Of a DNA stretch of 64,000 nt, positions 826-64,000 are shown piece after piece. Position 1 is the first letter of the stretch; the number at the start of each line of letters is the position of its first letter. The notes below the pieces were generated by a model. It made no database searches. It worked only from the letters and a program-made list of their open reading frames with translations, and had not been told where the DNA came from. The DNA comes from Hysterangium stoloniferum. Lineage: Eukaryota; Basidiomycota; Agaricomycetes; Hysterangiales; Hysterangiaceae. The position numbers were made by a program, and so were the translations under genes. The stretch covers positions 558,001-622,000 of the forward strand of contig WHVD01000012.1 in NCBI GenBank assembly GCA_015178975.1, given 5' to 3'.

Positions 826-1961
826 CTATTTTAGAGTCTCTGACACCCCAAATCCACTTTCTATCTCAACTCCCATCTCATCTGCAATCTCCACACTATT
901 CACCATATCCTGCACCTCTTCATCCTCACTTTCTGGCCCCTTTCCTGACTCCCACCTTTTTTTGACACATTCCACCAACAGATCATTTGGCTGTTCCCTT
1001 GCCTTATTGGAAAATCATTCGGAAACTGCGATGATGCCAATGCTAACCATTACCTTCTCCAGGAATTCATTTTGCCTCTGGAAATTCCGGGTCAACGAAC
1101 AGAAACCTTTTTCCTGGATATCATTATCGTGCTCCAGTGCATCCCACATTTTCATAAGCTCTGTCCCAATAAAAACCAACGTGTTGACGGTGTCTTTAAG
1201 GAGCTCAATGCCAGTACCATCTGTATCCAGCACTCTAGTTTCTGCAATCTTGGCTGTTCCCAAATTTTCTGCATCATCAGTTTTCTGAGCTTTCTCACCT
1301 TTTGGAACCCTCTTCATGGTGAGAGTGCATGGAAGTTTGAGAACTGTGCAGGGATAGCAAGTTCTGCCCCATTTTACCTTCTGTTTCCAACATGTCATAT
1401 TCCAAATCGAACATCGATAACATGGACTGTCATGGACAATTTCCATCTGTTCCAGAGCTTTGACCTTTTGATTCTGTTTCAGAAGTTAACCAACTTCCAG
1501 TCTTTTACGGATGTCACTTACTTTGGGACTCGAAGGCCCAGCCTCTCCCTCTGCCTCTACCTCCATGGCTTTTCACTGTATCCAATGGTTATCGGATGAA
1601 AACACAGAAACTTATGGTTTCACATTACCTTTCCCTCCCTTATCTCCTTCCTCTGTTCTGCCACCTCAGACTCCCATTGCTTTCTTTCCACCTCTTCCTT
1701 CTTCCTTTGAACCTCCGCCATCTTCCATATCCATGCCTCTTTTTCCGCCTTTGCCCGCTCCAAGTCCCGTTTTTCTGCCTCTTCAGCCTCCTTCAACTCC
1801 CGCATCAATGCCTTTTCCTCCTCCTCTTGTTGTCGCTTCATCTCCTCCATCCTCTGTCATTTTTGTCTAAGTTCTTCAACCTTTGACATTTTTTGAAGTA
1901 TGGCAATTTCAGTGTCTGAATCTTCTGGGGTAGTGATGAACAATGGTCAACATATCGACAT
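826..1961 (-). pseudogene. Antisense accessory gene of gypsy-B1 (coiled coil + Zn2Cys6-like cluster), decayed
   Basis: It lies antisense between pol and the 3' LTR. Reading leftward from an ATG at 1961 there is a charged coiled-coil segment (about 1620-1850), a GTAATG donor after REGK, a short exon ending GPSSPK before GTAAGT, and a third exon with six cysteines in the order C-X2-C-X6-C-X10-C-X2-C-X6-C (about 1310-1430). That is the spacing of fungal Zn(II)2Cys6 binuclear clusters. Splice positions match the less damaged copy at 44938-46082. The copy is dead: the ATG is followed by a TGA where B2 has CGA, exon 2 opens with TGA where B2 has CGA, and the C-terminus is shifted near 960-1015. The product has no known role; a DNA-binding protein is only an inference from the cysteine spacing. 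Confidence 0.72.
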
Positions 1962-25264: not shown

Positions 25265-25756
25265 CTAAGTTTTGTCTTCTGCCAAACCCACCTTGGGGCT
25301 CGATGGCCCCGGTGCATCCTCCTTGTCCTCCTCTTCCTCTTCGTCATCGGACTCCAAAGGCATCGCAGCCTTACACTAAAATATAAGTCAGTAAAATCTG
25401 CAAAAACACCGGCCGGAGCTGACTCACCTTCCCCTCCCATTTCTTCTTCGCACCTCCTCTCGCGCCCGTTTGGCCTCGCACTGCTTTTTCTTCGCAAGCA
25501 CTGCATCCCAGTGCTTGCGCGTGGCCTCTTCCACCACCTGTTTCTTCTCCTCAGCCTCTATGGCCGCCAACTCCTCTCTCTCTTTCCGCTCCTCCTCTTC
25601 ACGTGCCTTCCGCTTTTCCTCGAGTACGCGATGGCGTTCCTGCGCGTTAGCTGGTAACTCGGGACCGACAAGGGAGTGACCGTTAACTGAACCAGGAAGG
25701 GTTTTGACCCTGAACCTATGGTCATGGTGGTCGAGGGAAGAGAAGTGGAAATTCAA
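25265..25756 (-). pseudogene. Antisense accessory gene of gypsy-C (coiled-coil part only)
   Basis: It starts MNFHFSSLDHHDHRF at 25756. A long charged helix follows (ERHRVLEEKRKAREEE ... AAIEAEEKKQVVEEA), then a frame slip near 25445, then WEGK before a GTGAGT donor (25427). The next exon is acidic (CKAAMPLESDD, EEEEDKEDAPGPSSPK) and is followed by GTGGGT. Junctions after EGK and after SPK are the same as in gypsy-B2, although the proteins are otherwise divergent. The third exon with the six-cysteine cluster is absent; read-through stops at 25265. A TATA-like motif is at 25776-25783. Confidence 0.7.
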
Positions 25757-39324: not shown

Positions 39325-39889
39325 TGTTACGACCCGTTCCCGGATGTTTCAATATCCAACTTCTGACTTCCGACTTCCGACTTCCGATCCCCGACTACGG
39401 AACATCATAGTTACCGTATCATCCACATTCTTCCCTTGTTCCACATTTGGTAATTTGTCCGTTGACAAGTATTCACTCGTTTGTTTGTTGTATTCCCATC
39501 TCGGAATATTGTCTCCCTAATATGTCTTATTGTATTTCCATTTTAAGAACACTTCCGTTTCCATCTTATTATGGTCTTAGTTTGTAGTACAATAACGAGT
39601 AGACTTATATTAGTTTCCACGAATTTGTACTTTACTTTAGATCTGATATCGACTTAGTTTCTTATTCCTTCTCCCATCTTTCTGTACACTCGATATTCGG
39701 AACTCTTCGGAACTCTGAATATCCATATCTTCCGTCATAAGTTTTACTTCTGAAATTAAGGACATTGAGCGTTTGCGTAGAGGCGCAGCACATAAGCTGA
39801 AGCCGACGTCCTGACCCTATCCACGAGTTTCCGACTTCCCAGTTACTTTCCAATAGTTCTGGAATAAGTTCCCGACACGGCACTTAACA
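39325..39889 (+). repeat. 5' LTR of gypsy-B2
   Basis: It is 565 bp, TGTTACGACCC ... GGCACTTAACA. It is 7 bp longer than the 3' LTR because of one extra acttccg unit near the start. The hairpin module is at 39782-39812. Confidence 0.96.
39604..39649 (+). promoter_or_regulatory. TATA region and self-primer motif in the gypsy-B2 5' LTR
   Basis: A TATA-like cttatatt lies at 39604-39611. AGATCTGATAT at 39639-39649 is the reverse complement of the candidate PBS at 39892-39902. The spacing (about 33 nt) fits a transcript starting at 39639. Confidence 0.75.
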
Positions 39890-39891
39890 GT

Positions 39892-39902
39892 ATATCAGAT
39901 CT
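39892..39902 (+). other. Candidate self-priming PBS of gypsy-B2
   Basis: ATATCAGATCT lies 2 nt (gt) past the LTR end. The layout is the same as in gypsy-C, with a different 11-nt sequence that again matches its own LTR. Confidence 0.75.
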
Positions 39903-39923
39903 CAACTCTGCGACTCGCTCATC

Positions 39924-41153
39924 ATGGGTCCCAAACGCAAAGCTGCCGAAGGACCATCCCAACTTCAATCCCCGTTGCAACTTTACACCACCCAACCCGA
40001 AACCCCATTTCAGCCGACAACATCAGCTTGAGTCGAAGAAGTTACCGAGGAGGTTACCGAGGTAACAAAGGACACCAATGTTCCCCACACTTCCGACAAC
40101 GAAGCAGAAGATCAGCCGGAGACATCGAAAAAGAAATCTTCCGACGAACCAACTGAAATGTTGTTTATCAACTCCATTGTGAAATTCGCTGACTACTTGA
40201 AATCTGCTGAGGATAGTAAAGAATCATCCCACACCGGAGTCAAAGAACCCGAACCATTTACTGGCAAGGATCCGAAAAAATTGAAGAATTTCCTTCTCCA
40301 ATGCCGTTTCAGTTTCCATGATAGACCCAATGCATTTAAATCCGACAGTCGAAAAGTCAATTTTGCACTCTCATATCTCAAGGATACCGCTCAGGATTGG
40401 TTCGAACCCGGACTATCTGGAATATCCGACGAGACACCCATATGGCTCGACAACTGGGACGCTTTTGTGGAAGAACTGGAAACCAATTTCGGACCTTATG
40501 ATCAATCTGGCGAAGCGGAAAATGAATTAATGACGCTCAAGATGAAGGACAATCAACGAGTTTCCGATTATCTCGTCAAGTTCAATACCCTCACCGCAAG
40601 ATGTGGATGGGACGATTCCGCCCTCAGACACCATTTCTATATGGGACTTCCGTCACGCCTTAAAGATGAAATCTTCAAAGATGGAAAGCCGAAAACTCTC
40701 CAACTCATGCGGATGAAAGCTCAAACATCCGATGCCCATTATTGGGAACGAAAAGCCGAGGTCTCTCGAGAAAACCCGACGGAACGTTCTCAGAACAACA
40801 AGGCGTCAACTAGCAAGTCTTCCGGCAACAACTCAGGCAATAACACCGGCAACTCTGGCACTAATATTGGCAAATCAAACTCCGACCAGAAGAAAGACAA
40901 AAAATCCAACAAGGAAAAACAGTCAACTTCTGACAAACCCGACATTTCCCATTTGTTGGGTACCGACGGTAAACTCACCCCGAAGGAGAAACAACGACGC
41001 ATGGACAACGACCTCTGCCTTTTCTGCGGGAAAGGCGGACACAAGGTTTCCGACTGTACCGTTAAATCTAACTCTTCCAAGGCCCGTGCGGCAACTTCCA
41101 CTACGACTACAACATCCAAGGAAAAACCCACCACGGAGCCGAAAAAAGAGTAA
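39924..41153 (+). pseudogene. Gypsy-B2 gag
   Basis: It starts MGPKRKAAEGPSQLQSP. Codon 36 is TGA (40029-40031), the only break. The retrotransposon gag core follows (GKDPKKLKNFLLQCRFSF, ALSYLKDTAQDWFEPGL, RVSDYLVKFNTLTARCGW, GLPSRLKDEIF), an Asn/Ser-rich linker, and the zinc knuckle CLFCGKGGHKVSDC. It ends KK-E-TAA after an A6 run. Pol follows in the -1 frame. Confidence 0.93.
41138..41153 (+). promoter_or_regulatory. Candidate -1 frameshift site at the gag/pol boundary
   Basis: ccgAAAAAAGagTAA: six A then G just before the gag stop; pol is open in the -1 frame from here. The same tcgAAAAAAGatTAA stands at the end of the inverted gag of gypsy-C. It is not a textbook X-XXY-YYZ heptamer in the gag frame, so the mechanism is uncertain. 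Confidence 0.4.
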
Positions 41154-41155
41154 GC

Positions 41156-44100
41156 AACCCTCCGGAATCTGCACGGAAAGAGGGTTGCGTTGACTCTCTC
41201 CGTGTTTCCGAGGTTATCCATCTCAACACGTCCACTCTCTCTAATCCCGATTCATTATTTGTAAAACTCGTTTCTGACTTTCTTGGAAATTTAGTGTTCC
41301 GAGCTCTGATAGATTCCGGCTCCACACACTGTTTTGTAGATACCACCTTTGCCACGAAACATAATCTGAAACTCCATTCTGTTCCCGCAATTTCCTTGCA
41401 TCTGTTTGACGGCACTAGCAATATGGCAATTACTCAAGCCTGCGACATGTCTATCTGGTTTCCTTGTGGAACATCCCAGACGGTTACCTTTTTCATAACA
41501 CAGTTGGACTCTAGCTGTTCGGTAGTTCTTGGATACAACTGGCTCACCCAATATAATCTGTTGATTGACTGGGTATTGGGCAGTATTAATTTCCGTATTC
41601 CCGACACTTCGGTTCCTCCTGCAGCATCTTTTCCGGCCAACACCTTTTCGGCATCTATGGCACCTCCGGCTTCTACCGAAACCTCCACGCCTCCAAAAAT
41701 CTCTCTCATCAACGCTTCGGCATTTGTTAGGGCGAGTAAACTGGATGGTTCACAGTGTTTTTCGATCAGCTTAAAAGTTGATGAAGCATCTGGACGTTTT
41801 GCGACTCCAGAATTATCCGAGCTAAAAGCCAACCTGGAAGGAGTTCCCGAAAAATACCATGATTTCGCAGACATTTTCAGTAAGCAAAAAGCTGACAGGC
41901 TTGCACCACATAGGCCTTACGACTTAAAAATCGATATTGAGCCCGGTTCAAACCCTCCATTAGGACCTATTTACCTGTTATCCCAATCAGAACTTTCGTC
42001 TATTCGGGAGTTCCTGGATGAACATCTGTCAATAGGTTTTATCCGTCCCTCAAAGTCTCCATATGGAACACCCGTCCTTTTCGTCCAAAAGAAGGATGGC
42101 TCTCTTCGACTATGTGTCGATTTCAGAGGATTAAATTCCATCACACGGAAAGATAAGTATCCACTTCCACTCGTTACTGATTTACTCGATGCCCCATGGA
42201 AAGCTCGGACCTACACCAAAATAGACCTCAAACATGCCTATCATTTGGTCTGAATTGCCGAGGGCGATGAATGGAAAACTGCTTTTCGGACTCGCTATGG
42301 ATCCTTTGAATGGTTGGTTATGCCGTTCGGCCTTACCAACGCCCCTTCCGCTTTTCAACGTTTTGTTAATGATATATTTTCCGACATGCTTGACATATGT
42401 GTTATAGTCTATTTGGACGACATTTTGGTATTTTCCGAGGATCCCGCTCTTCACGATGAACAAGTCCGTGAAGTCTTCCGAAGACTCCATAAAAACGGTC
42501 TTTTCGCCAATGGTAAAAAATGCTACTTTGACATGGATTCTATTGAATACTTAGGTTTCATTATCGGACCTGATGGTCTCCGTATGGATGAAACCAAAGT
42601 TCAAGTTGTCCGTGATTGGCCCGAACCACGGAAAGTCAAGGATATTCAGTCATTTTTAGGTTTCGCCAACTTTTACAGTCGTTTTATTCGGAACTACTCA
42701 GATATTACAGTACCGCTCACTCGTCTTACCCATAAAACTCAACCATGGGTCTTTGACGATAAATGCCGATCCGCCTTTCAGACTTTAAAAAATGCTTTCA
42801 CTTCTGCCCCAATCCTTTCCCATTGGAAACCTGATGTTCCGATTATTGTGGAAACCGATACTTCCGATTATGCAATTGCCGCGATTCTTTCCATTCAAGA
42901 TTCCGACGGTGAAATTCATCCGGTCGCATTTCTTTCTCGGACACTGAAAGTGTCCGAACTCAACTATGACGTTCATGATAAGGAACTTTTGGCAATTTTT
43001 GAAGCTTTTAAACATTGGCGCCATTATCTCGAAGGTTCCTCAACTCCCGTTGATGTTGTTACCAATCACAAAAATCTCGAATATTTTTCTACCACTAAAC
43101 TTTTAACCCGCCGGCAAGCCCACTGGTCCGAATTCCTTTCTGCTTTCAACATGATTATCCGTTTCCGACCTGGACATCTTGGTGGAAAACCAGATACCAT
43201 GACTCGACGATGGGACGTCTATCCTAAAGATGGGGAAAGTAACTATGCCGTTGTTAATCCACATAACTTAAAACCGGTTTTTACAACGCAACAACTTTCC
43301 GCATCTATCCGAGCAACTTCCCTTTACTATCCAATTATGCGTAGCGTCATGATTATGGACATTGAGCAATTACATCAAGATATCCTTTCCGCACTCACTT
43401 CCGACCCGGCTCTCAAGCCACACCTAGAAGTTCCTGACAATCCGGACCAACCCCGATGGTCACAGGACTCTCAAGGTTTTATCCAAATCGATGGATGTAT
43501 CTACGTTCCAGATTCCAACAATCTCCAACTCCGCGTACTTCAGTATAAACACGATCATCCAATCTCCGGACATTATGGCATTAACAATACTCTTGGTCTA
43601 ATCCGTAGAGAATACACTTGGCCTAACCTCCGAGATTTCGTAACCCAGTTCTGTAAGTCATGCACCACCTACTTACGCTCCAAAACCCAGAGACATAAGC
43701 CGTACGGCCTTCTCAAGCAACTCCCGATACCAGAAAAACCCTGGAATTCAATTTCCATGGATTGTATCGAACAACTCCCGACTTCTGAAGGCTTTACATC
43801 CATTCTAGTTGTTGTGGATCGATTCTCAAAACAAGGCATTTTCATACCCACTCATGATACAATTATGTCCTTACAATTAGCGGAACTTTTCATTATTCAT
43901 GTATTTTCCAAACACGGAGTTCCATCTCACGTAACTTCCGATTGAGGCTCCAAGTTCGTCTCCCACTTCTTCCAGGCTCTCGGAAAAGCCCTCGACATGA
44001 AATTACACTTCACCTCGGGATATCACCCGGAAGGTGATGGACAAACGGAACGCGTAAATCAAACACTAGAACAATATCTCCGCATCTATTGCAATTATCA

Positions 44101-44838
44101 ACAGGACAATTGGAAATCCCTTCTCCCGATCGCGGAATTCGCCTACAATAACTCTCCGAATGCAACTACCGGCGTATCTCCTTTTTTCGCCAACAAAGGC
44201 TATAATCCGAATCTCACCGTACATTCCAAATGAGATTTGGCTTCTGTCCGTGCTCAAGAATTTATTACTGACCTTGACGAATTACATCAAGAACTTCAGA
44301 AAGCTATTTCTTCCGCACAGGAATATTATCAACGTTCCGTGGACAAAAACAGGATCCCGCCTCCTAATTTTAAAATTGGTGATCAGGTTTTTGTAAAAGC
44401 TCAATTTTTCCGTACTACCCGACCTTCTAAAAAACTCGCTGAGAAATTCTTAGGACCTTTTGAAATTATAGCACAAGCCGGTTCACTCTCATGGACTCTC
44501 CGACTTCCCGACAGTATGCGAGCAGTCCATCCCGTTTTCCACGTTTCCATGTTAGAACCTTGTGTTCCTAACTCAATCCCGGAACGTATTCAACCTCCGT
44601 CCCCTCCGGTCATCATTGATGGAGAACCCAAATTTGAAGTTTCCGAAATTTTGGATTCTAAAATTGACAATCGCTGACGTACTTGTAAATTGCTCTATTT
44701 AGTCAAATGGGCAGGTTATGAAGGTACCGACGAGGAAGCTTCATGGATATTGGCCACGGAACTAGGACACGCTATGGAAATTGTCACTGATTTCCACACG
44801 GCTTATCCAAGTAAACCCGGACCTTTATCGTCACTCTA
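41156..44838 (+). pseudogene. Gypsy-B2 pol: protease, RT, RNase H, integrase, chromodomain
   Basis: Order seen: protease (FRALIDSGSTHCFVD, catalytic DSG; VLGYNWL), RT (GFIRPSKSPYGTPVLFVQK, LCVDFRGLNSIT, MPFGLTNAPSAFQRF, VYLDDILVF catalytic), RNase H (VETDTSDYAIAAILS, YDVHDKELLAIF), integrase (HDHPISGHYGINNT ... CTTYLR zinc region; VVVDRFSKQ, HVTSD, YHPEGDGQTERVNQ), and chromodomain (EILDSKIDNR; YLVKWAGYEGTDEEASW). Four TGA codons break it: 42251, 43943, 44231 and 44675. Each can be explained by CGA to TGA; at 44675 copy B1 still has CGA. It ends with TAA after KPGPLSSL. Confidence 0.95.
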
Positions 44839-44937
44839 ACCCTTTTCTGTTTTCTTTCTGTTCAGTTTCCGTCACTCCCGACACTTCCGATATCACACTC
44901 ATTTTAGGTTTTGCAAGTCAAAAAAATATTATTAGGA

Positions 44938-46082
44938 CTATCTGAAAGTCTCTGACACCCCAAATCCTCCTTCCATTTCCACTCCCATATCATCGGCAAT
45001 CTCCGCAATTTCCACCATATCCTGCACCTCTTCATCCTCACTCTCTGATTCTTCCGGCCCATTTCCTGACGCCCACCTCTTTTCGACACATTCTGCCAAC
45101 GGATCATTAGGCTCTTCCCGTGCCTTATCGGAAAACCTCTCGGATACTGCGATAACACCAATGCTAACCATTATCTTCTCCAGGAAATCGTTTTGCCTCC
45201 GGAAATTCCAGACCAACGAACAGAAACCCTTCTCCTGGATATCATTGTGGCAATCCATTGTGTCCTGCATTTTCATGACTTCCATCCCGATAAAAACCAA
45301 CGCGTCGACAGTTTCCTTGAGGAGCTCAATGCCCGTATTATCCGTTTTCGGCGTTTCAGTTTCCGCAGCTTTGGCCGCTCCTGAACTTTCCACGTCGTTA
45401 GTTTTTGGAGTCTTCTCACCCTTTGGAACCCTTTTCGAGGCGAGGGTGCACGGAAGTTTGAGGACCACACAGGGATAACAAGTCCCACCCCATTTTACCT
45501 TCTGTTTCCAACATGTCATATTCCGTATGGAACATCGATAACACGGAGTTTCATGGACGATTTCCATCCGTTCCGGAGCCTTGACCTTTTGTTTCTGTTT
45601 CGGAAGATTAGTCAATTACTGATCTTATGCAGATGCACTTACTTTAGGACTCAAAGGCCCAGCTTCTCCCTCTACCTCCACCTCCACGGCTTTTCGCTGT
45701 ATGCAACAGTTATCGGTTGGAACCACAGAAAATTATGGACGGCACTTACCTTTCCTTCCTTTATCTCCTCATGTTGTTTTACCGCCTCTGATTCCCGCTG
45801 TAACTTCTCCGCCTCTTCCTTCTGTTTCTGAACCTTTGCCGTTTTCCGGATCCACACTTCCTTCTCTGCTTTCGCCCGCTCCAATTCCTGTTTTTCCGCC
45901 TCTTCCGCATCTTTCAACTCCTGCATCAACGCTTTTTCCTCCTCCTCCTGTCGTCGTTTTAACTCCTCCATTTTTTGGTGTTTTTGTTGAAGTTCTGCGA
46001 CCTTCGACATTTTTTGAAGAACGGATAATTCGGTATCTGAGTCTTCCGGGGTAGTGATGAATAACGGTCGACGAATCGACAT
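44938..46082 (-). CDS. Antisense accessory gene of gypsy-B2: coiled coil + Zn(II)2Cys6-like protein
   Basis: I read three exons, 45750-46082, 45643-45696 and 44938-45594, with introns of 53 and 48 bp (GTAAGT donors, ACAG acceptors) all in phase 0. They give 1044 nt, 347 residues, no stop. Start MSIRRPLFITTPEDSD; residues about 30-110 are a dense charged coiled coil (EELKRRQEEEEKALMQEL); exon 2 is acidic and ends GPLSPK. Exon 3 holds six Cys at 147, 150, 157, 168, 171 and 178, spacing 2-6-10-2-6, as in Zn(II)2Cys6 DNA-binding domains, with Lys/Arg-rich flanks. The tail is acidic (ESESEDEEVQD). It reads antisense to the element between pol and the 3' LTR, with its own TATA box. Function unknown; nuclear DNA binding or control of the element is inference only. 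Confidence 0.75.
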
Positions 46083-46130
46083 ACAAGTCGTGGATAAAGA
46101 AACAAAAATGTTAATTCGAATATCTGGAGG

Positions 46131-46138
46131 TTTTTATA
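46131..46138 (-). promoter_or_regulatory. TATA box of the antisense gene in gypsy-B2
   Basis: TATAAAAA on the minus strand in GAGTATAAAAACCTCC, about 50 nt upstream of the ATG at 46082. Conserved in copy B1. Confidence 0.6.
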
Positions 46139-46266
46139 CTCAAAACATCAGCTGAAACTCTCACCTCCATATTTGCGTAAATTTCACGACACATAACAGT
46201 CAGCCATCGCTTCAATCACTCAGTACCTAATCGCCTCTATGGGATTTCGGCCTAACAGGGGGGTAC

Positions 46267-46824
46267 TGTTACGACCCATTCCCGGATGTTTCAATATCCA
46301 ACTTCCGACTTCCGACTTCCGATCCCCGACTAGGGAACATCATAGTTACCGTATCATCCACATTCTTCCCTTGTTCTGCATTTGGTAATTTGTCCGTTGA
46401 CAAGTATTCACTCGTTTGTTTGTTGTATTCCCATCTTGGAATATTGTCTCCCTAATATGTCTTATTGTATTTCCATTTTAAGAACACTTCTGTTTCCATC
46501 TTATTATGGTCTTAGTTTGTAGTACAATAACGAGTAGACTTATATTAGTTTCCGCGAATTTGTACTTTACTTTAGATCTGATATCGACTTAGTTTCTTAT
46601 TCCTTCTCCCGTCTTTCTGTACGCTCAATATTCGGAACTCTTCGGAACTCTGAATATCCATATCTTCCGTCGTAAGTTTTACTTCTGAAATTAGGGACAT
46701 TGAGCGTTTGTGTAGAGGCGCAGCACATAAGCTGAAGCCGACGTCCTGACCCTATCCACGAGTTTCCGACTTCCCAGTTACTTTCCAATAGTTCCGGAAT
46801 AAGTTCCCGACATGGCACTTAACA
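46267..46824 (+). repeat. 3' LTR of gypsy-B2
   Basis: It is 558 bp and nearly identical to 39325-39889, which implies recent insertion. Hairpin module at 46717-46747. Confidence 0.96.
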
Positions 46825-46924: not shown

Positions 46925-49900
46925 TAAGGTAGGCATCACTTTAGTTCAGCACCTGTGTATGTAAGCAAAAAAGTGACCTACTCACACTCCTTTCTGTGCT
47001 TCCACAACATAGATAATATGTAATTAAAGCCCAGGGAAGTGGAGTTGGGATCCATTCCTCCAGTTCTCAGGTTTAAAACTTGAAAAATAATTCACCCTTG
47101 CCAAGTAGTAGGACTTACAAATTTTAACTTTTTTTTTGAGTCTCTGAATGCTTAAAAACTCGTTTCCATGTGATTCTGAGATTTTCAAAATTTCGCAAGT
47201 GTCAGTATTGGCCGCTTACATAATCATCACGTGATATATTGGGCAGCCTTGTTTTAAGGGCCTAAAATTGGGAAAGAAAACTGTATTAAATTCAAATATA
47301 TGTACTTATCTTACTACATAAAAATTCTCCTAAGAAAAAGAGGGTATAGCTGCACATGTACTTGTGCAGTAAGCTGTGCACTTGATCACAGGCCACATTA
47401 CATAAGCAGTGCAGTGGCAAATGCACAGTTGCACAGTTCTACTACCATGCCTCAGAAGTCTAAAGCTGCACAATCTCGCATCAAAAACCTTGGATCCAAG
47501 GCACAACAAAAGCCCTCAGTGACAATCAAGGATGTCCCAGATAATGATGACTTCAATTGCAAACCAGTTTCTCTCAATCTAGATCAAAGCAATGAAAGGA
47601 TGTATGAGGAAGCATTTATTGTGGATGAAGAAGATGGATCTCTCACCTTGGTAGGCTTTCTTGATGACTTTGAGGAAGAACCTCTACTAGATCTTGCTCA
47701 TGATTTGGACTCGGATGATGAAAATGATGAAAATCCTAGAGATAATTACCCAGAGATTCAAGAACTCTCTGACCTGGAACAGTTCTCAAGGATACTTGCT
47801 GAGGCACAGAGGATAGCAGTTGAGGCTGAAGATGAGAGGTTAAAGGAAAACAGGCGACCAAAGAAATATCTCAAAAACTCTGCACGAACAAAACGAAGGC
47901 ATAAACAGATTGGAAAGGACCTAGAGAAGCAAGGTTACCTTTCCATTAGGACATGGTTTGCAAAAGCCAATGCTGCAGAGAGTGAGGTTAATGAGGTTGC
48001 TAGGGGGCAGAATTCTGAGTCAGATGTGGAAATGGCCACCCTTGACAAAGATCAAGAGAACATATCTGCTGGAAAAAGCGACTCAGTGAGTTTGATCTTA
48101 TGGACTGCTGTGGTTATTGTTCTACTGACCAAATATTATTAGTCAATTGAAGAAATTGAAAGACAGGTTAACACTGAAATATATCCACCTTCCAAAGCTC
48201 ATGAAAAGGTTGAAGAGCTCCTTCAGGCACTACGAGAAGGCCAAAAACCTGGGGACAACACTCTATCCACAGAATCTGATATCATACTGGATCAATTAAA
48301 TTACAAGGACTTACCAAAGCTTCGGCAAGCCTGTGCAGCATTGACTGTGAAGAGCAAAGATAAGAAAATTGATGTTCTCTTTCGAGGACGGCTTACTGGG
48401 ATGGTTGGGACATTGAACCTTTATCTTGACCCACAGCTCTCATATACCTGGCGCGAGGCTTCTCTTATTGCATCAAAATCACAAAGCCATGGAGTTAGCC
48501 ATGCATGCAATCTGCGAACATGGATACATCAGTTCCTGGGTTCTGGAAAATTACCTCTTCACAGATATGGAAAGCTATGGGGTACCCTTCTTGATGATGA
48601 GGACTTTTCACAAGCAATACAGATTCACCTGTCTGGAATTGCCAAGACCAACTATATCCAAGCTCAGGATATTGTTGACTTCATGCAGACACCAGAAATG
48701 CAAGAAAGGCTTGAGGAGATTGGTTCCAATAAAAAGAAGATATCAATACATACCACACAACGGTGGCTCCATAGGATGGGATGGCAATATGGGAGGAAAA
48801 GGAATGGTATGTATGTTGATGGCCATGAGAGGGAAGATGTTGTCAAATACCAGATGGAATTTATTGAACGGTGGAAAGTCTATGACAAGCGGATGTATTC
48901 ATATGATAATGATGGAAACCATGAAGGTGAACTCACTGGATTCCCTGTCCCACCTGGCCAACGTTTCCAGCTCATTCTTATCACCCATGATGAATCAACA
49001 TTTTATGAGACTGACCGTCAGAAAACCATGTGGGCCCATCAATCAGATAAAGCAGTCCCATTAAAGAAGGGGGAAGGTGTTTCTCTCATGGTCTCAGATT
49101 TTTTGACCATTGAATGGGGAAGATTGCAAAGTGAGGATGGCATGGAGTGAGTTAATCTTGCACTCTAAATTTAGAATTACTATTTAATCTATGAAATGCA
49201 GGTCAGCACGCATTGTCTTCAAAGCAGGAAAAAATCGTGATGGCTACTTCTCATCTGATGACTTGATCACACAAGTTGACACAGCCATCGATATTTTTGA
49301 AGGACGGACAAATGGGTTTGCAACAGGTCTGTTCATTTTTGATAATGCACTGAGCCATCAGAAGCGTGCAGATGATGCACTTTCTGCAAGAAAGATGCCA
49401 AAGTATCCATCTGCAACCTGGGTTCATTGCAAAGGAGGCTCTCACATGCGAAATACTGTGTTAGCAAATGGAGACACCCAGTCCTTTTATTTTGAAGAGG
49501 ACCATCCTACAATGCCTGGATGGTTTAAAGGGATGGAACAAATCATCCGGGAATGAGGCCTATGGAGGGAAAGTGGCTTACTTGCACAATGTGAAGGTTT
49601 TAAATGTGTACAAGGAAAAACTGACTGTTGCTGCCGTCGCCTTCTTTTTACCCAACCAGACTTTGTGGCACAAAAATCTCAACTTGAAGAGTTCATCACA
49701 TTGCGGGGTACATCTGTGACTTCTACCCAAAATATCACTGCAAGCTTAATTTTATTGAGCAGTATTGGGGTGCAGCAAAGTTCCATTACCGAAACACCCC
49801 CAAAACCAATAACATTGTTGAGATGGAAAAGAATATGCTTACATGCTTGGATGATATCCCTTTGCTTCAAATCAGAAGGTATTTCTCTTATCCTTCTGCC

Positions 49901-59019: not shown

Positions 59020-62000
59020 CTAACCATGGCATCCTTGCCAATGGTTTCCATGGGCCATATGGCTCAAATCAAGCTCAATAGCTGTTCGTGGAATGAAAAG
59101 TCTAGTTAATGGAGTATAAAATGGCTTTCGAAAACCAGGTGGTACCCAAAATAAGAGTCGGTTATTGGGTCCCTTCATCCATCCTTCGCTGTCCAGTGTG
59201 AGTAAACTCAGGCAATAATCATCTAAGGAGATGCCTTCCAGAAGCTGTGCCATTCCAGAAAGTGCATGATCATTGCACGGTGAAAACTTAACAGAGGGTT
59301 GCACGATAGCATCCCATAGCTGGATGGTCTTGTCAGCAGAACCGGACACAATCCTCGTCCCGTCCGGCGAAAACGAGACCGAACAAACCCCAGACGTGTG
59401 TCCCTGCAACGGCTCCTGCAACGGCTTTCCCGTCGCCACATCCCAGAGCCGGATGGTGTTGTCATCAGAACCGGACACGATCCGAGTCCCGTCCGGCGAA
59501 AACGAGACCGAAGAAACCCAAGACGTGTGTCCCTCCAACGGCTCCTGCAACGGCTTTCCCGTCGCCGCATCCCAGAGCCAGACGGTCTTGTCATCAGAAC
59601 CGGACACGATCCGAGTCCCGTCAGGCGAAAATGAGACTGAAGAAACCGAAGACATGTGTCCCTGAAACGGCTCCTGCAACGGCTTTCCCGTCGCCGCATC
59701 CCAGAGCCGGACGGTCTTGTCACCAGAACCGGACACGATCCGAGTCCCGTCAGGCGAAAACGAGACTGAAGAAACCCAAGACGTGTGTCCCTCCAACGGC
59801 TCCTGCAACGGCTTTCCCGTCGCCGCATCCCAGAGCCGGACGGTCTTGTCACCAGAACCGGACACGATCCGAGTCCCGTCAGGCGAAAACGAGACTGAAG
59901 AAACCCAAGACGTGTGTCCCTCCAACGGCTCCTGCAACGGCTTTCCCGTCGCCGCATCCCAGAGCCGGACGGTGTTGTCATCAGAACCGGACACGATCTG
60001 AGTTCCGTCAGGCGAAAACGAGACTGAAGAAACCCAAGACGTGTGTCCCTCCAACGGCTCCTGCAACGGCGTTCCCGCCGCCTCATCCCAGAGCCGGACG
60101 GTGTTGTCATCAGAACCGGACACGATCTGAGTTCCGTCAGGCGAAAACGAGACTGAAGAAACCGAAGACGTGTGTCCCTGCAACGGCTCCTGCAACGGCT
60201 TTCCCGTCGCCACATCCCAGAGCCGGATGGTGTTGTCACCAGAACCGGACACGATCCGAGTCCCGTCAGGCGAAAACGAGACCGAAGAAACCCAAGACGT
60301 GTGTCCCTGCAACGGCTCCTGCAACGGCTTTCCCGTCGCCACATCCCAGAGCCGGATGGTGTTGTCACCAGAACCGGACACGATCCGAGTCCCGTCAGGC
60401 GAAAACGAGACCGAAGAAACCCAAGACGTGTGTCCCTCCAACGGCTCCTGCAACGGCTTTCCCGTCGCCGCATCCCAGAGCCGGACGGTCTTGTCATCAG
60501 AACCGGACACGATCCGAGTCCCGTCCGGCGAAAACGAGACCGAAGAAACCCAAGACGTGTGTCCCTCCAATGGCTCCTGCAACGGCTTTCCCGTCGCCGC
60601 ATCCCAGAGCCGGATGGTGTTGTCATCAGAACCGGACACGATCCGAGTCCCGTCCGGCGAAAACGAGACCGAAGAAACCGAAGACGTGTGTCCCTGCAAC
60701 GGCTCCTGCAACGGCTTTCCCGTCGCCGCATCCCAAAGCCGGATGGTGTTGTCACGAGAACCGGACACGATCCGAGTCCCGTCAGGCGAAAACGAGACCG
60801 AACAAACCCCAGACGTGTGTCCCTGCAACGGCTCCTGCAACGGCTTTCCCGTCGCCGCATCCCAGAGCCGGACGGTCTTGTCATCAGAACCGGACACGAT
60901 CCGAGTCCCGTCAGGCGAAAACGAGACCGAAGAAACCCAAGACGTGTGTCCCTCCAACGGCTCCTGCAACGGCTTTCCCGTCGCCGCATCCCAGAGCCGG
61001 ACGGTCTTGTCATCAGAACCGGACACGATCTGAGTCCCGTCCGGCGAAAACGAGACTGAAGAAACCGAAGACGTGTGTCCCTCCAACGGCTCCTGCAACG
61101 GCTTTCCCGTCGCCGCATCCCAGAGCCGGACGGCGTTGTCATCAGAACCGGACACGATCCGAGTTCCGTCCGGCGAAAACGAGACTGAAGAAACCGAAGA
61201 CGTGTGTCCCTCCAACGGCTCCTGCAACGGCTTTCCCGTCGCCGCATCCCAAAGCCGGATGGTGTTGTCACGAGAACCGGACACGATCCGAGTCCCGTCA
61301 GGCGAAAACGAGACCGAACAAACCCCAGACGTGTGTCCCTGCAACGGCTCCTGCAACGGCTTTCCCGTCGCCGCATCCCAGAGCCGGACGGTCTTGTCAT
61401 CAGAACCGGACACGATCCGAGTCCCGTCAGGCGAAAACGAGACCGAAGAAACCCAAGACGTGTGTCCCTCCAACGGCTCCTGCAACGGCTTTCCCGTCGC
61501 CGCATCCCAGAGCCGGACGGTCTTGTCATCAGAACCGGACACGATCTGAGTCCCGTCAGGCGAAAACGAGACCGAAGAAACCCAAGACGTGTGTCCCTCC
61601 AACGGCTCCTGCAACGTTTGCTTTCCCGTCGCCGCATCCCAGAGCCGGATGGTGTTGTCACCAGAACCGGACACGATCCGAGTCCCGTCAGGCGAAAATG
61701 AGACTGAAGAAACCGAAGACGTGTGTCCCTGCAACGGCTCCTGCAACGGCTTTCCCGTCGCCGAATCCCAGAGCCGGACGGTCTTGTCATCAGAACCGGA
61801 CACGATCCGAGTCCCGTCAGGTGAAAATGAGACTGAAGAAACCCAAGACGTGTGTCCCTGCAACGGCTCCTGCAACGGCTTTCCCGTCGCCGAATCCCAG
61901 AGCCGGACGGTCTTGTCATCAGAACCGGACACGATCCGAGTCCCGTCCGGCGAAAATGAGACCGAATGAACCGAAGACGTGTGTGCCCGAATTACACTTT

Positions 62001-64000
62001 GAACAACCGGCCAGTTGAGATTATGCCTTGAAGCCAATCGAAGAGTATTAGGATATATTTCATTGAATTTGCGTGATATAATGGAGTTACTTGGCGACAA
62101 TGGAAGTGCTGACAGGTATAGGTGCGGAGTGCTGTATGTAATCGCAACACCAAACATCTGAATGAACCTGACAACATCTAATACGGTGGAAGAAACGTCT
62201 TCATATCCGGCTTGCTCCTACCATGGTCCATTAACATCTTCCATTGTCTCCATTATTAAATGATAATCACTAACCTTTAGCCACCCAGCTATTCGCAGAA
62301 GTTCTGATGCCGTGCTACTCGTCAGAGCATCGGCAAGGCTGAGTGCCTCGAGCCAAAATAGTGTATGTTCATCATTGAGGAATGATACCACTTCATCAAC
62401 CAGGCGTTTTTCGAGAGCAATTCTTTTCTCCTCATTTACGGTTGCATCGCGCAGTGCTTCCAGAATATGTTTCAACCAAAACCGACATGAATACGACAGA
62501 TGAGGGGAGATGTATTTCTTGACGGTTTCTGGCAGGCCCGGAACCTGTACGTTAGGGTAATACGACGACTCTATCTTGCAAATGTTAAACCGAAGACCAT
62601 GTCCCGGGTCAATCATAACTCGCAACGACGCGAATGCAAGGTCATTATGCGCCTTCGAGATGTCCACAAAAAATTCTTTACTAAGTTTCTGGTCCGTCAG
62701 AAAATCACGAAATGATGCATGAAGAGGTTGGATGGGGGAAGATGAGTCAGTTACACCGTTCAGAAGCGAACCCATATGTTTCACCACCAACCCCGCGTCA
62801 TAATGGTCATTACTATTTGCAAATTCGAGCCGCATTGCATTTAAAGAAGCCAACGGGAGAGGTTCGGCTGCGCTAAGTATTTGACTCATCACTGAACAGA
62901 ACTCTGACAAGAATCTTGAACGTGAGTTTTTTTCACCATCAACGCCCGTTCCATCATCGTCTGGTGCAATCTGTGACAGAATGGAGTGGTATAATTTGTT
63001 AAGCCCTCGAGGGGTGTGCGACGTGATATAACGGAGTCGTTTTATAGGGTCCCGACCACGCGTGTCTGAGATATATTGGCAAGCAATGCGTGCCCACTCA
63101 AAGACCCCTTCAGCTTTCTTGGCAAGAGATGTGAACTCCTCCATTCCTAGGCCGGCAATCTCTTGTAGCTTGTGCTCAACGTAAGTCCGGACGTCATGCT
63201 CTGCAGAGTCCGGCCGAATATCATTCATGGAAACTTGTTTAATGTGGTCGACTCCTTTGAATTTGTCTGATATGTCATCAAGGGGACGGGATGTGACGAA
63301 GATCCGAAAATTGTCAGGAAGTTTAGTAACACGTGGAATGGCAGGATCATCGAGTTTGCAGGACAAAACACGAAGGAGGTGCTCTCGCGTTGCAGCTTCT
63401 CCGCTTTCATCCAATGCATCCATCACAATGACTACAGGGCCCGCATGCAACCCATGCATTTTCTTGAGAGGTTCCATTACAAGCTTGTGCCACTGCTGTA
63501 CAATGTCAACCGTACCCTTCAGTTGCGTGTTATCCTTAACAGCGTTCGCCAGTGCTAGCCTTATCGCAGGATCGAGATCCGCGAGGTCCCGAGCGATAGT
63601 TGAGAAGACTTTTTCGTGCCGCCGATCGCTTGTTCTGTTACGGTCGAAGCAGAAGCATGAACCGAGGGCTCCAACATCCTTGCACCACCGAGCTATCGTG
63701 TGAGCGATTGCTGATTTACCTTTGCCTGCAGAGCCAGATAGCCACACGATACGGGGAACGTCACTTCCTGTCATGAAGATCCAATCAACGATATCCTTAA
63801 GGATCTCTTCACGTGTGTTCGGCAGGCATTGTTTGCTGGTGTCCAGCCCAGCGCCACTTGCATAGATTATGTCGTTGATGTCGAGTGTTTCAGTCAAAGG
63901 CACGAAAATTTCCTTGCCTATGTGATCAACAAAGAGCTCTACATCCCGAATGGTATTATCTCGCAACTGCTGCATGAGATAATCCAAAACACTATTGTAT
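59020..64000 (-). CDS. NACHT-WD40 STAND protein (NWD/HET-E-like), 5' end outside window
   Basis: Two exons joined across a 54-bp intron (62168-62221, GTAGGA ... TCAG) give at least 1,630 residues; the frame is open to the window edge. The NACHT NTPase has Walker A GSAGKGKS and Walker B VVIVMDALDE (about 100 codons apart) and FVTSRP. After a helical linker (ISPHLSYSCRFWLKHI) and the junction W-FIQMFGV comes STPHLYLSALPLSPSNS, then 21 nearly identical 43-residue WD40 repeats and a conserved tail (GWMKGPNNRLLFWVPPGFR; ELDLSHMAHG). Fungal STAND proteins sense ligands with the repeat domain and oligomerise through NACHT to trigger an N-terminal effector, often in heterokaryon incompatibility (family knowledge). 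The effector domain is not in this window. Confidence 0.95.
59310..61980 (-). repeat. 129-bp tandem array coding 21 WD40 repeats
   Basis: Units read GHTSxVxSVSFSPDG then IVSGSxDxTxRLWD and ATGKPLQEPL, 43 codons each. Two have small changes (one KQTLQEPLE unit with an extra codon, one AAGTPLQ). DNA identity is so high that other frames on both strands stay open for hundreds of codons. Confidence 0.97.

What the first reader, a model, noticed from the sequence alone, without database searches (positions are those of the whole stretch)
44938..46138. Spliced antisense Zn(II)2Cys6-like gene carried by chromodomain gypsy elements
In B2, B1 and C an antisense gene occupies the space between pol and the 3' LTR. 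Seen directly: TATA box on the minus strand, three in-phase exons in B2 (347 aa), a coiled coil, and six Cys with 2-6-10-2-6 spacing. The introns fall at the same places (after EGK and after SPK) in families B and C although the sequences are far apart, which argues for an old, selected gene and not a chance ORF. A retrotransposon that carries its own putative transcription factor, read against its genome, is unusual; it could regulate the element or silence/compete with sense transcripts. Gypsy-C has lost the cysteine exon.
Basis: partly seen in the sequence, partly recalled or inferred. Interest (0 to 1): 0.87.

Follow-up and report, generated by a model that had tools for sequence, protein, structure and literature searches.

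The report
Spliced antisense gene in fungal retrotransposon
An abundant, recently active jumping gene of a mushroom-type fungus carries on its reverse strand a real intron-containing gene for a coiled-coil protein with a zinc-cluster-like cysteine motif; selection has preserved it, and it may let the element regulate itself.

Summary
Confirmed, with corrections. On the minus strand of gypsy-B2 lies a three-exon, 347-aa gene (TATA 46138, ATG 46082, stop 44938) with two short GT-AG introns, tail-to-tail with pol inside a complete LTR element (39325-46824, TSD GGTTG). The host genome (111 Mb) was searchable: at least 150 B-type and 150 C-type copies of exon 3 were scored (capped lists), and in 60 of 60 sampled copies pol lies opposite and LTR sequence upstream. 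In 31 B and 29 C copies both introns keep GT-AG and the gene's frame shows dN/dS 0.22 and 0.21 (pol 0.20; other same-strand frames 0.96-1.21). Transversions alone give weaker constraint in B (0.53; exon 3 0.82) than in C (0.27). B and C share 32% identity, both intron positions, TATA position and six cysteines. A copy with identical LTRs has gag, pol and the antisense gene open. Zn(II)2Cys6 membership is not established; only spacing fits. Expression and function are untested. Antisense extra genes are known in plant LTR elements and Botrytis (brtn), so this is a new variant of a known kind.

The parts
39325..46824 (+). complete gypsy-B2 element, LTR to LTR, TSD GGTTG on both sides
   Evidence: LTRs with TGTTA..TAACA ends; 14 transitions, 1 transversion, 7 gap columns; TSD read directly
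39325..39889 (+). 5' LTR
46267..46824 (+). 3' LTR
40032..41153 (+). gag ORF (Retrotrans_gag, zinc knuckle)
   Evidence: Pfam
41072..44839 (+). protease, RT, RNase H, integrase and chromodomain; broken by stops in this copy
   Evidence: Pfam, (chromodomain below cut-off here, above cut-off in relative L068)
46131..46138 (-). TATA box of the antisense gene, 56 nt before the ATG
   Evidence: TATAAA in 31 of 31 B copies and 27 of 30 C copies, C at -54 to -57
45750..46082 (-). exon 1, 111 aa, rich in Glu, Lys, Arg, Gln, Ala
45697..45749 (-). intron 1, 53 nt
   Evidence: GT..AG in 31 of 31 B copies
45643..45696 (-). exon 2, 18 aa
   Evidence: length 54 nt in 31 of 31 B copies
45595..45642 (-). intron 2, 48 nt
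   Evidence: GT..AG in 31 of 31 B copies
44938..45594 (-). exon 3, 218 aa and stop; six-cysteine block and long predicted helix
45448..45543 (-). C-x2-C-x6-C-x10-C-x2-C-x6-C block
829..1961 (-). homologous gene in B1, decayed
25292..25725 (-). exons 1 and 2 of the C-family gene; exon 3 missing in this copy only

Best explanation
A chromovirus lineage of Ty3/gypsy retrotransposons in a basidiomycete carries an accessory gene transcribed against gag-pol from its own TATA promoter beside the 3' LTR and spliced by the host. SHOWN from sequence: gene model, conserved splice sites, codon-level purifying selection, fixed place in the element, presence before the B/C split, and an open copy in an element with identical LTRs. 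FOLLOWS from the retrotransposition cycle: the genomic RNA is the other strand and cannot splice these introns, so an intron-bearing gene can pass the RNA stage only in this orientation. INFERRED: the protein is a nuclear coiled-coil dimer with a zinc-cluster-like domain that binds DNA, probably in the element, and adjusts the element's own transcription or chromatin, working like (not related to) the HBZ antisense regulator of HTLV-1.
For: 31 of 31 B and 29 of 29 C copies keep ATG and both GT-AG introns. dN/dS 0.22 and 0.21 against 0.96-1.21 in other same-strand frames; pol 0.20 in the 22 clean copies. TATA at the same distance in both families. 60 of 60 sampled copies tail-to-tail with pol and below an LTR. 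Same intron places and six cysteines in B and C at 32% identity. L068: LTRs with 0 of 584 mismatches, TSD, open gag, pol and antisense gene. Cys block followed by a confidently predicted helix of about 70 residues in both families, an order recalled from Gal4-type proteins. Relatives outside the window genome.
Against: No RNA evidence. The Cys block is not a significant Zn_clus match and AlphaFold2 leaves it unresolved (pLDDT mostly under 50). Transversion-only ratios are weaker in B (0.53; exon 3 0.82) than for pol (0.20), so part of the low dN/dS in B reflects transition-rich decay. Net charge of the proteins is negative (-7 in both). CGG/CCG triplets are enriched over shuffles in the LTR but also inside the element, so they are no clear target-site clue. 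The DNA-binding and regulatory steps are inference.
Confidence: 0.55

Rival explanations
1. The protein is not a transcription regulator but a partner of gag or the integration complex (assembly, nuclear entry, target choice); the cysteines and coiled coil make protein or RNA contacts.
For: Between B and C the antisense gene (32%) and gag (30%) have diverged alike while pol stayed at 81%; no significant Zn_clus match; acidic net charge.
Against: The gag comparison rests on a decayed C copy and 127 aa. Separate antisense promoter and splicing suggest timing or dose apart from gag-pol (inference).
Confidence: 0.22
2. The protein counters host silencing of the element (anti-silencing factor), comparable in effect to VANC of Arabidopsis VANDAL elements (recalled, not looked up).
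For: Large copy number and recent activity in a genome whose copies decay by transitions and TGA stops; strong conservation within families with rapid change between them.
Against: No direct evidence; no similarity to known anti-silencing proteins was tested.
Confidence: 0.13
3. The antisense transcript matters as RNA (double-stranded RNA, interference) and the ORF is incidental.
For: Convergent transcription would give overlap of sense genomic RNA with the antisense mRNA; dsRNA roles are discussed for plant elements (PMC7264820, passages).
Against: Codon-phase conservation, exon lengths mostly in multiples of three and dN/dS near 0.2 are not expected if only RNA mattered.
Confidence: 0.04
4. 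Chance ORF, or the shadow of a conserved sense-strand ORF.
For: A sense ORF of 180 aa (44936-45478) overlaps; the sense frame sharing third positions has dN/dS 0.29 (B) and 0.31 (C).
Against: That sense frame averages about 5 stops per copy against about 1 in the antisense frame, and the conserved GT-AG sites lie on the minus strand.
Confidence: 0.02

Closest known systems
brtn, antisense gene of Boty-like (BcGypsy1) retrotransposons of Botrytis cinerea (Zhao et al. 2011: seen only as a reference; passages in PMC8365987, and PMC4227169)
   Same: Additional antisense gene in a fungal gypsy element whose gag-pol carries a chromodomain
   Different: Ascomycete; I saw no account of introns, cysteine motif or selection, and had no brtn sequence to compare
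Antisense additional ORFs (aORF-3R) of plant LTR elements: Grande, RIRE2, Retand with TRP28 (PMC7264820, PMC11963269; passages)
   Same: Antisense gene between pol and 3' LTR, conserved in lineages, thought to be nuclear or DNA-binding, role unknown
   Different: Retand is a non-chromovirus lineage with the TRP28 domain; here the gene has two introns, a six-cysteine block and a chromovirus carrier
Fungal Zn(II)2Cys6 (Gal4-type) regulators, Pfam PF00172
   Same: Six cysteines in fitting spacing, helix after the block
   Different: Pfam match not significant; similarity not beyond cysteine-preserving shuffles
HBZ of HTLV-1 (described in passages of PMC11963269)
   Same: Antisense regulatory protein from the 3' part of an LTR element
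   Different: No homology claimed; HBZ is a bZIP protein (recalled)
P0002 (227 aa, organism not named) and hypothetical proteins P0001, P0003 of Hysterangium stoloniferum
   Same: P0002: same Cys motif, 42% identity over 156 aa. P0001: 54% to the window protein where aligned, helix part only. P0003: 72% over 28% of the query
   Different: Genomic context not available, so whether they sit in elements is unknown

Membership tests
Antisense additional ORF (aORF-3R) of LTR retrotransposons | lies between pol and 3' LTR, opposite to gag-pol | tested here: met
   60 of 60 sampled copies; the C LTR query was a candidate stretch and matched only 115 nt in L043
Antisense additional ORF (aORF-3R) of LTR retrotransposons | kept as coding sequence in many copies | tested here: met
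   dN/dS 0.22 and 0.21; 11 of 31 B and 10 of 29 C copies fully open; copies were best matches, not a random sample
Antisense additional ORF (aORF-3R) of LTR retrotransposons | transcribed from an antisense promoter | not testable with these tools
   no RNA data; only a conserved TATA box and splice sites
Fungal Zn(II)2Cys6 (Zn_clus, PF00172) | six cysteines C-x2-C-x6-C-x(5-12)-C-x2-C-x(6-8)-C (spacing recalled) | tested here: met
   C-x2-C-x6-C-x10-C-x2-C-x6-C; five Cys invariant, sixth in 21 of 22
Fungal Zn(II)2Cys6 (Zn_clus, PF00172) | reaches the Pfam gathering score | tested here: not met
   no match for B2 at E<=1; 8 of 16 relatives listed, best E 0.32
Fungal Zn(II)2Cys6 (Zn_clus, PF00172) | profile similarity beyond the cysteine spacing | tested here: inconclusive
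   score 22.2; all-column shuffles reach at most 18.2, cysteine-keeping shuffles average 16.1 and reach 30.2
Fungal Zn(II)2Cys6 (Zn_clus, PF00172) | binds two zinc ions and DNA | not testable with these tools
   needs protein
Chromovirus (Ty3/gypsy with chromodomain) | gypsy order PR-RT-RH-IN with a C-terminal chromodomain | tested here: met
   L068 pol: RVP, RVT_1, RNase H, integrase, Chromo over cut-off
brtn of Boty-like elements | sequence homology to brtn | not testable with these tools
   no brtn sequence held; protein searches listed no Botrytis protein

The most novel reading that the evidence does not exclude
A retrotransposon lineage carries its own zinc-cluster, coiled-coil DNA-binding regulator as an intron-containing gene that can pass the RNA stage only because it is antisense; it has travelled with the element since before the B/C split and controls the element's expression or chromatin, a fungal counterpart of retroviral antisense regulators.
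Probability: 0.35. Interest if true: 0.82.

Novelty: new variant of a known kind. Interest (0 to 1): 0.64.

Why it matters
What antisense extra genes do in LTR retrotransposons is an open question (stated in PMC7264820 and PMC11963269, passages). Here such a gene is under clear selection, is spliced (so its mRNA can be told from genomic RNA by sequencing alone), and sits in copies recent enough to have identical LTRs, which makes the question testable in a fungus. It also shows how antisense orientation lets an RNA-copied element keep an intron-bearing gene, and warns that some basidiomycete 'hypothetical proteins' may be retrotransposon accessory genes.

Tried and rejected
Rejected: chance ORF and sense-ORF shadow; loss of the Cys exon in family C. 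Controls and errors mended on the way: the first alignment had part of the copies in the wrong orientation (redone); the first C alignment was too gappy (redone); shifted-frame controls over joined exons fell back into frame in later exons (redone per frame). A first pol dN/dS of 0.48 and pol transversion ratio of 0.81 came from copies whose flank did not align; after I dropped 8 of 30 rows (L003, L004, L008, L013, L017, L020, L027, L029; L013 only for one block at 0.83) and got 0.20 and 0.20.

Against my reading: transversions alone give 0.53 in B (exon 1 0.34, exon 3 0.82) and 0.27 in C, with 1.2 to 1.9 in the other two frames of the whole gene. Antisense synonymous difference (0.265) is about twice that of pol (0.141) in the same 22 copies; unexplained, perhaps exchange of modules between subfamilies.

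Led nowhere: protein search with B residues 105-347, PDB sequence search, viral contigs. AlphaFold2 did not resolve the Cys block, so no fold search was run. CGG/CCG enrichment is not special to the LTR. Papers: eight completed searches of the open PMC library listed no paper that I recognised as describing this gene; subscription papers are mostly not held, and of six papers opened I saw passages only.

Full report
WHAT IS THERE. Between pol and the 3' LTR of gypsy-B2, on the minus strand, lies a three-exon gene: TATAAAAA at 46138, ATG at 46082, exons 46082-45750, 45696-45643 and 45594-44938, introns of 53 and 48 nt, both GTAAGT..ACAG and both in phase 0. It encodes 347 aa. Its end lies about 100 bases from the end of pol, so the two genes are convergent. 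The element is complete: LTRs 39325-39889 and 46267-46824 (14 transitions, 1 transversion, 7 gap columns) and the target-site duplication GGTTG on both sides; gag, protease, RT, RNase H and integrase on the plus strand; a chromodomain that is below the Pfam cut-off in this copy and above it in relative L068.

COPIES IN THE GENOME. The window's genome (111 Mb, 554 contigs) could be searched. A 61-aa piece with the cysteines gave 814 first-look candidates, of which 150 were scored, all at 82% identity or more. C exon 3 gave 449 candidates, 150 scored at 68-100%. P0002, a relative from elsewhere, gave 914 candidates, 150 scored at 35-45%. These lists are capped, so they are lower bounds. I used 30 B loci (one of them the window copy) and 30 C loci (one the window copy); they are the best matches, not a random sample. 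In 60 of 60, pol lies on the opposite strand downstream of the gene and LTR sequence upstream; the LTR match is short (115 nt) in L043.

A REAL GENE. Of 31 B copies (B2, B1 and 29 loci) all 31 have the ATG and GT..AG at both introns. Exon lengths are multiples of three in 29, 31 and 29 of 31 (exons 1, 2, 3), while introns vary (50-54 and 47-48 nt). 11 of 31 are open from ATG to stop. Of 29 C copies (the window copy L031 left out, as it lacks exon 3) all 29 have the ATG and both GT..AG pairs; exon lengths are multiples of three in 26, 27 and 20 of 29; introns range from 47 to 62 nt; 10 of 29 are open. Pooled Nei-Gojobori dN/dS is 0.22 (B) and 0.21 (C); the other two frames of the same strand give 0.96-1.21. 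On the other strand two frames give 1.01-1.28, and the frame that shares third positions gives 0.29 (B) and 0.31 (C) with about 5 stops per copy, against about 1 in the gene's frame. In the 22 copies whose pol flank aligns cleanly, pol gives 0.20 and the antisense gene 0.22.

CAVEAT ON SELECTION. Decay here is rich in transitions, which can lower dN/dS. With transversions alone the ratio is 0.53 in B (exon 1 0.34, exon 3 0.82) and 0.27 in C (exon 1 0.25, exon 3 0.32), against 1.2 to 1.9 in the other frames of the whole gene; pol is 0.20. Selection is firm in C and in B exon 1 and weaker, by this measure, in B exon 3.

AGE AND ACTIVITY. B and C proteins align at 32% over 165 aa (E 5e-18). Introns fall at the same places (B: EGK and SPK; L038 of family C: ERK and NPK; the window C copy: EGK and SPK), exon 2 of B2 and L038 begins RKA, and the TATA box stands 56 nt (B2) or 54-57 nt (27 of 30 C loci) before the ATG. 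Pol is 81% identical over 331 aa, gag 30% over 127 aa. So the gene predates the B/C split and has diverged about as much as gag. Copies L067 and L068 have two 584-nt LTRs without a mismatch, 5-bp target-site duplications, and open gag (419 aa) and pol (1237 aa); the antisense gene is open in L068 and has one stop in L067. The lineage moved recently with the gene on board.

THE PROTEIN. The first 105 residues are 66% Glu, Lys, Arg, Gln and Ala in both families, which suggests a coiled coil. Exon 3 holds C-x2-C-x6-C-x10-C-x2-C-x6-C in both; in 22 sequences five Cys are invariant and the sixth is in 21, although B and C exon 3 are only 21-29% identical. Comparing the two family profiles gives probability 88.6 over 40 columns around the cysteines. 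AlphaFold2 predicts a long helix after the block (B exon-3 residues 86-160, C 55-126) and leaves the block itself at low confidence. Pfam Zn_clus is listed for 8 of 16 members, best E 0.32. Against four host Zn_clus domains the block scores 22.2: above all-column shuffles (at most 18.2 in 100), within shuffles that keep the cysteines (mean 16.1, up to 30.2). It is Zn2Cys6-like by spacing; membership is not established.

RELATIVES. Protein searches gave P0002 (227 aa, no organism named, same motif, 42% identity over 156 aa) and two hypothetical proteins of Hysterangium stoloniferum that match the helix part. The host is thus probably an Agaricomycete near that group; this is inference.

HOW IT PROBABLY WORKS. 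In the sense genomic RNA the introns read CT..AC and cannot be spliced; in a minus-strand mRNA they can. An intron-bearing gene can therefore be carried by an RNA-copied element in this orientation and no other, and the kept introns argue that it is expressed from the minus strand in the lineages that survive. No RNA was seen. I hold a nuclear, dimeric, DNA-binding regulator of the element to be the likeliest role, with a gag or integration partner and an anti-silencing factor as main rivals.

WHAT IS KNOWN. [quoted passage not shown] passages). In fungi, Boty-like elements of Botrytis carry the antisense gene brtn (Zhao et al. 2011, seen only as a reference; passages in PMC8365987 and PMC4227169). 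A figure legend in PMC2864245 lists an additional ORF of unknown function in Tcn1-like elements (passage). Other extra ORFs occur in rotifer elements (PMC5408684, passages). Eight completed searches listed no paper that I recognised as reporting a spliced, six-cysteine antisense gene in basidiomycete chromoviruses. Hence a new variant of a known kind.

Noticed in passing
59181-62063 (minus-strand ORF 59020-62217, 1065 aa): About 21 copies of a 129-bp unit, most 90-96% alike, coding WD40-like repeats (SFSPDGTRIVSGSDDKTVRLWD); looks like the repeat part of a fungal NLR or HET-type gene (recalled); not scanned against families.
   Followed up: no
47258-49150 plus: Two long ORFs (294 and 335 aa) just beyond B2 without a Pfam match at E<=0.01; the second reads like a DNA transposon transposase.
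   Followed up: partly
G000 contigs C56 (27459-28077, 39173-39800, 44795-45410) and C115 (74483-75050): Several Zn_clus matches packed within a few hundred bases: host genes with what look like tandem Zn2Cys6 domains.
   Followed up: no
L038, upstream of the gene: The LTR beside this C copy is followed by an inverted copy of LTR sequence, a head-to-head arrangement.
   Followed up: no
B family antisense gene and pol, 22 copies: Synonymous difference is 0.265 in the antisense gene and 0.141 in pol of the same copies; L067/L068 and B2 differ strongly in the second half of exon 1. Possible module exchange.
   Followed up: partly
L068 LTR, first 100 bases: Repeated CTTCCGA-like units; CGG/CCG triplets 34 against 19.4 from shuffles in the LTR, but 267 against 207.5 in the internal region as well.
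   Followed up: partly
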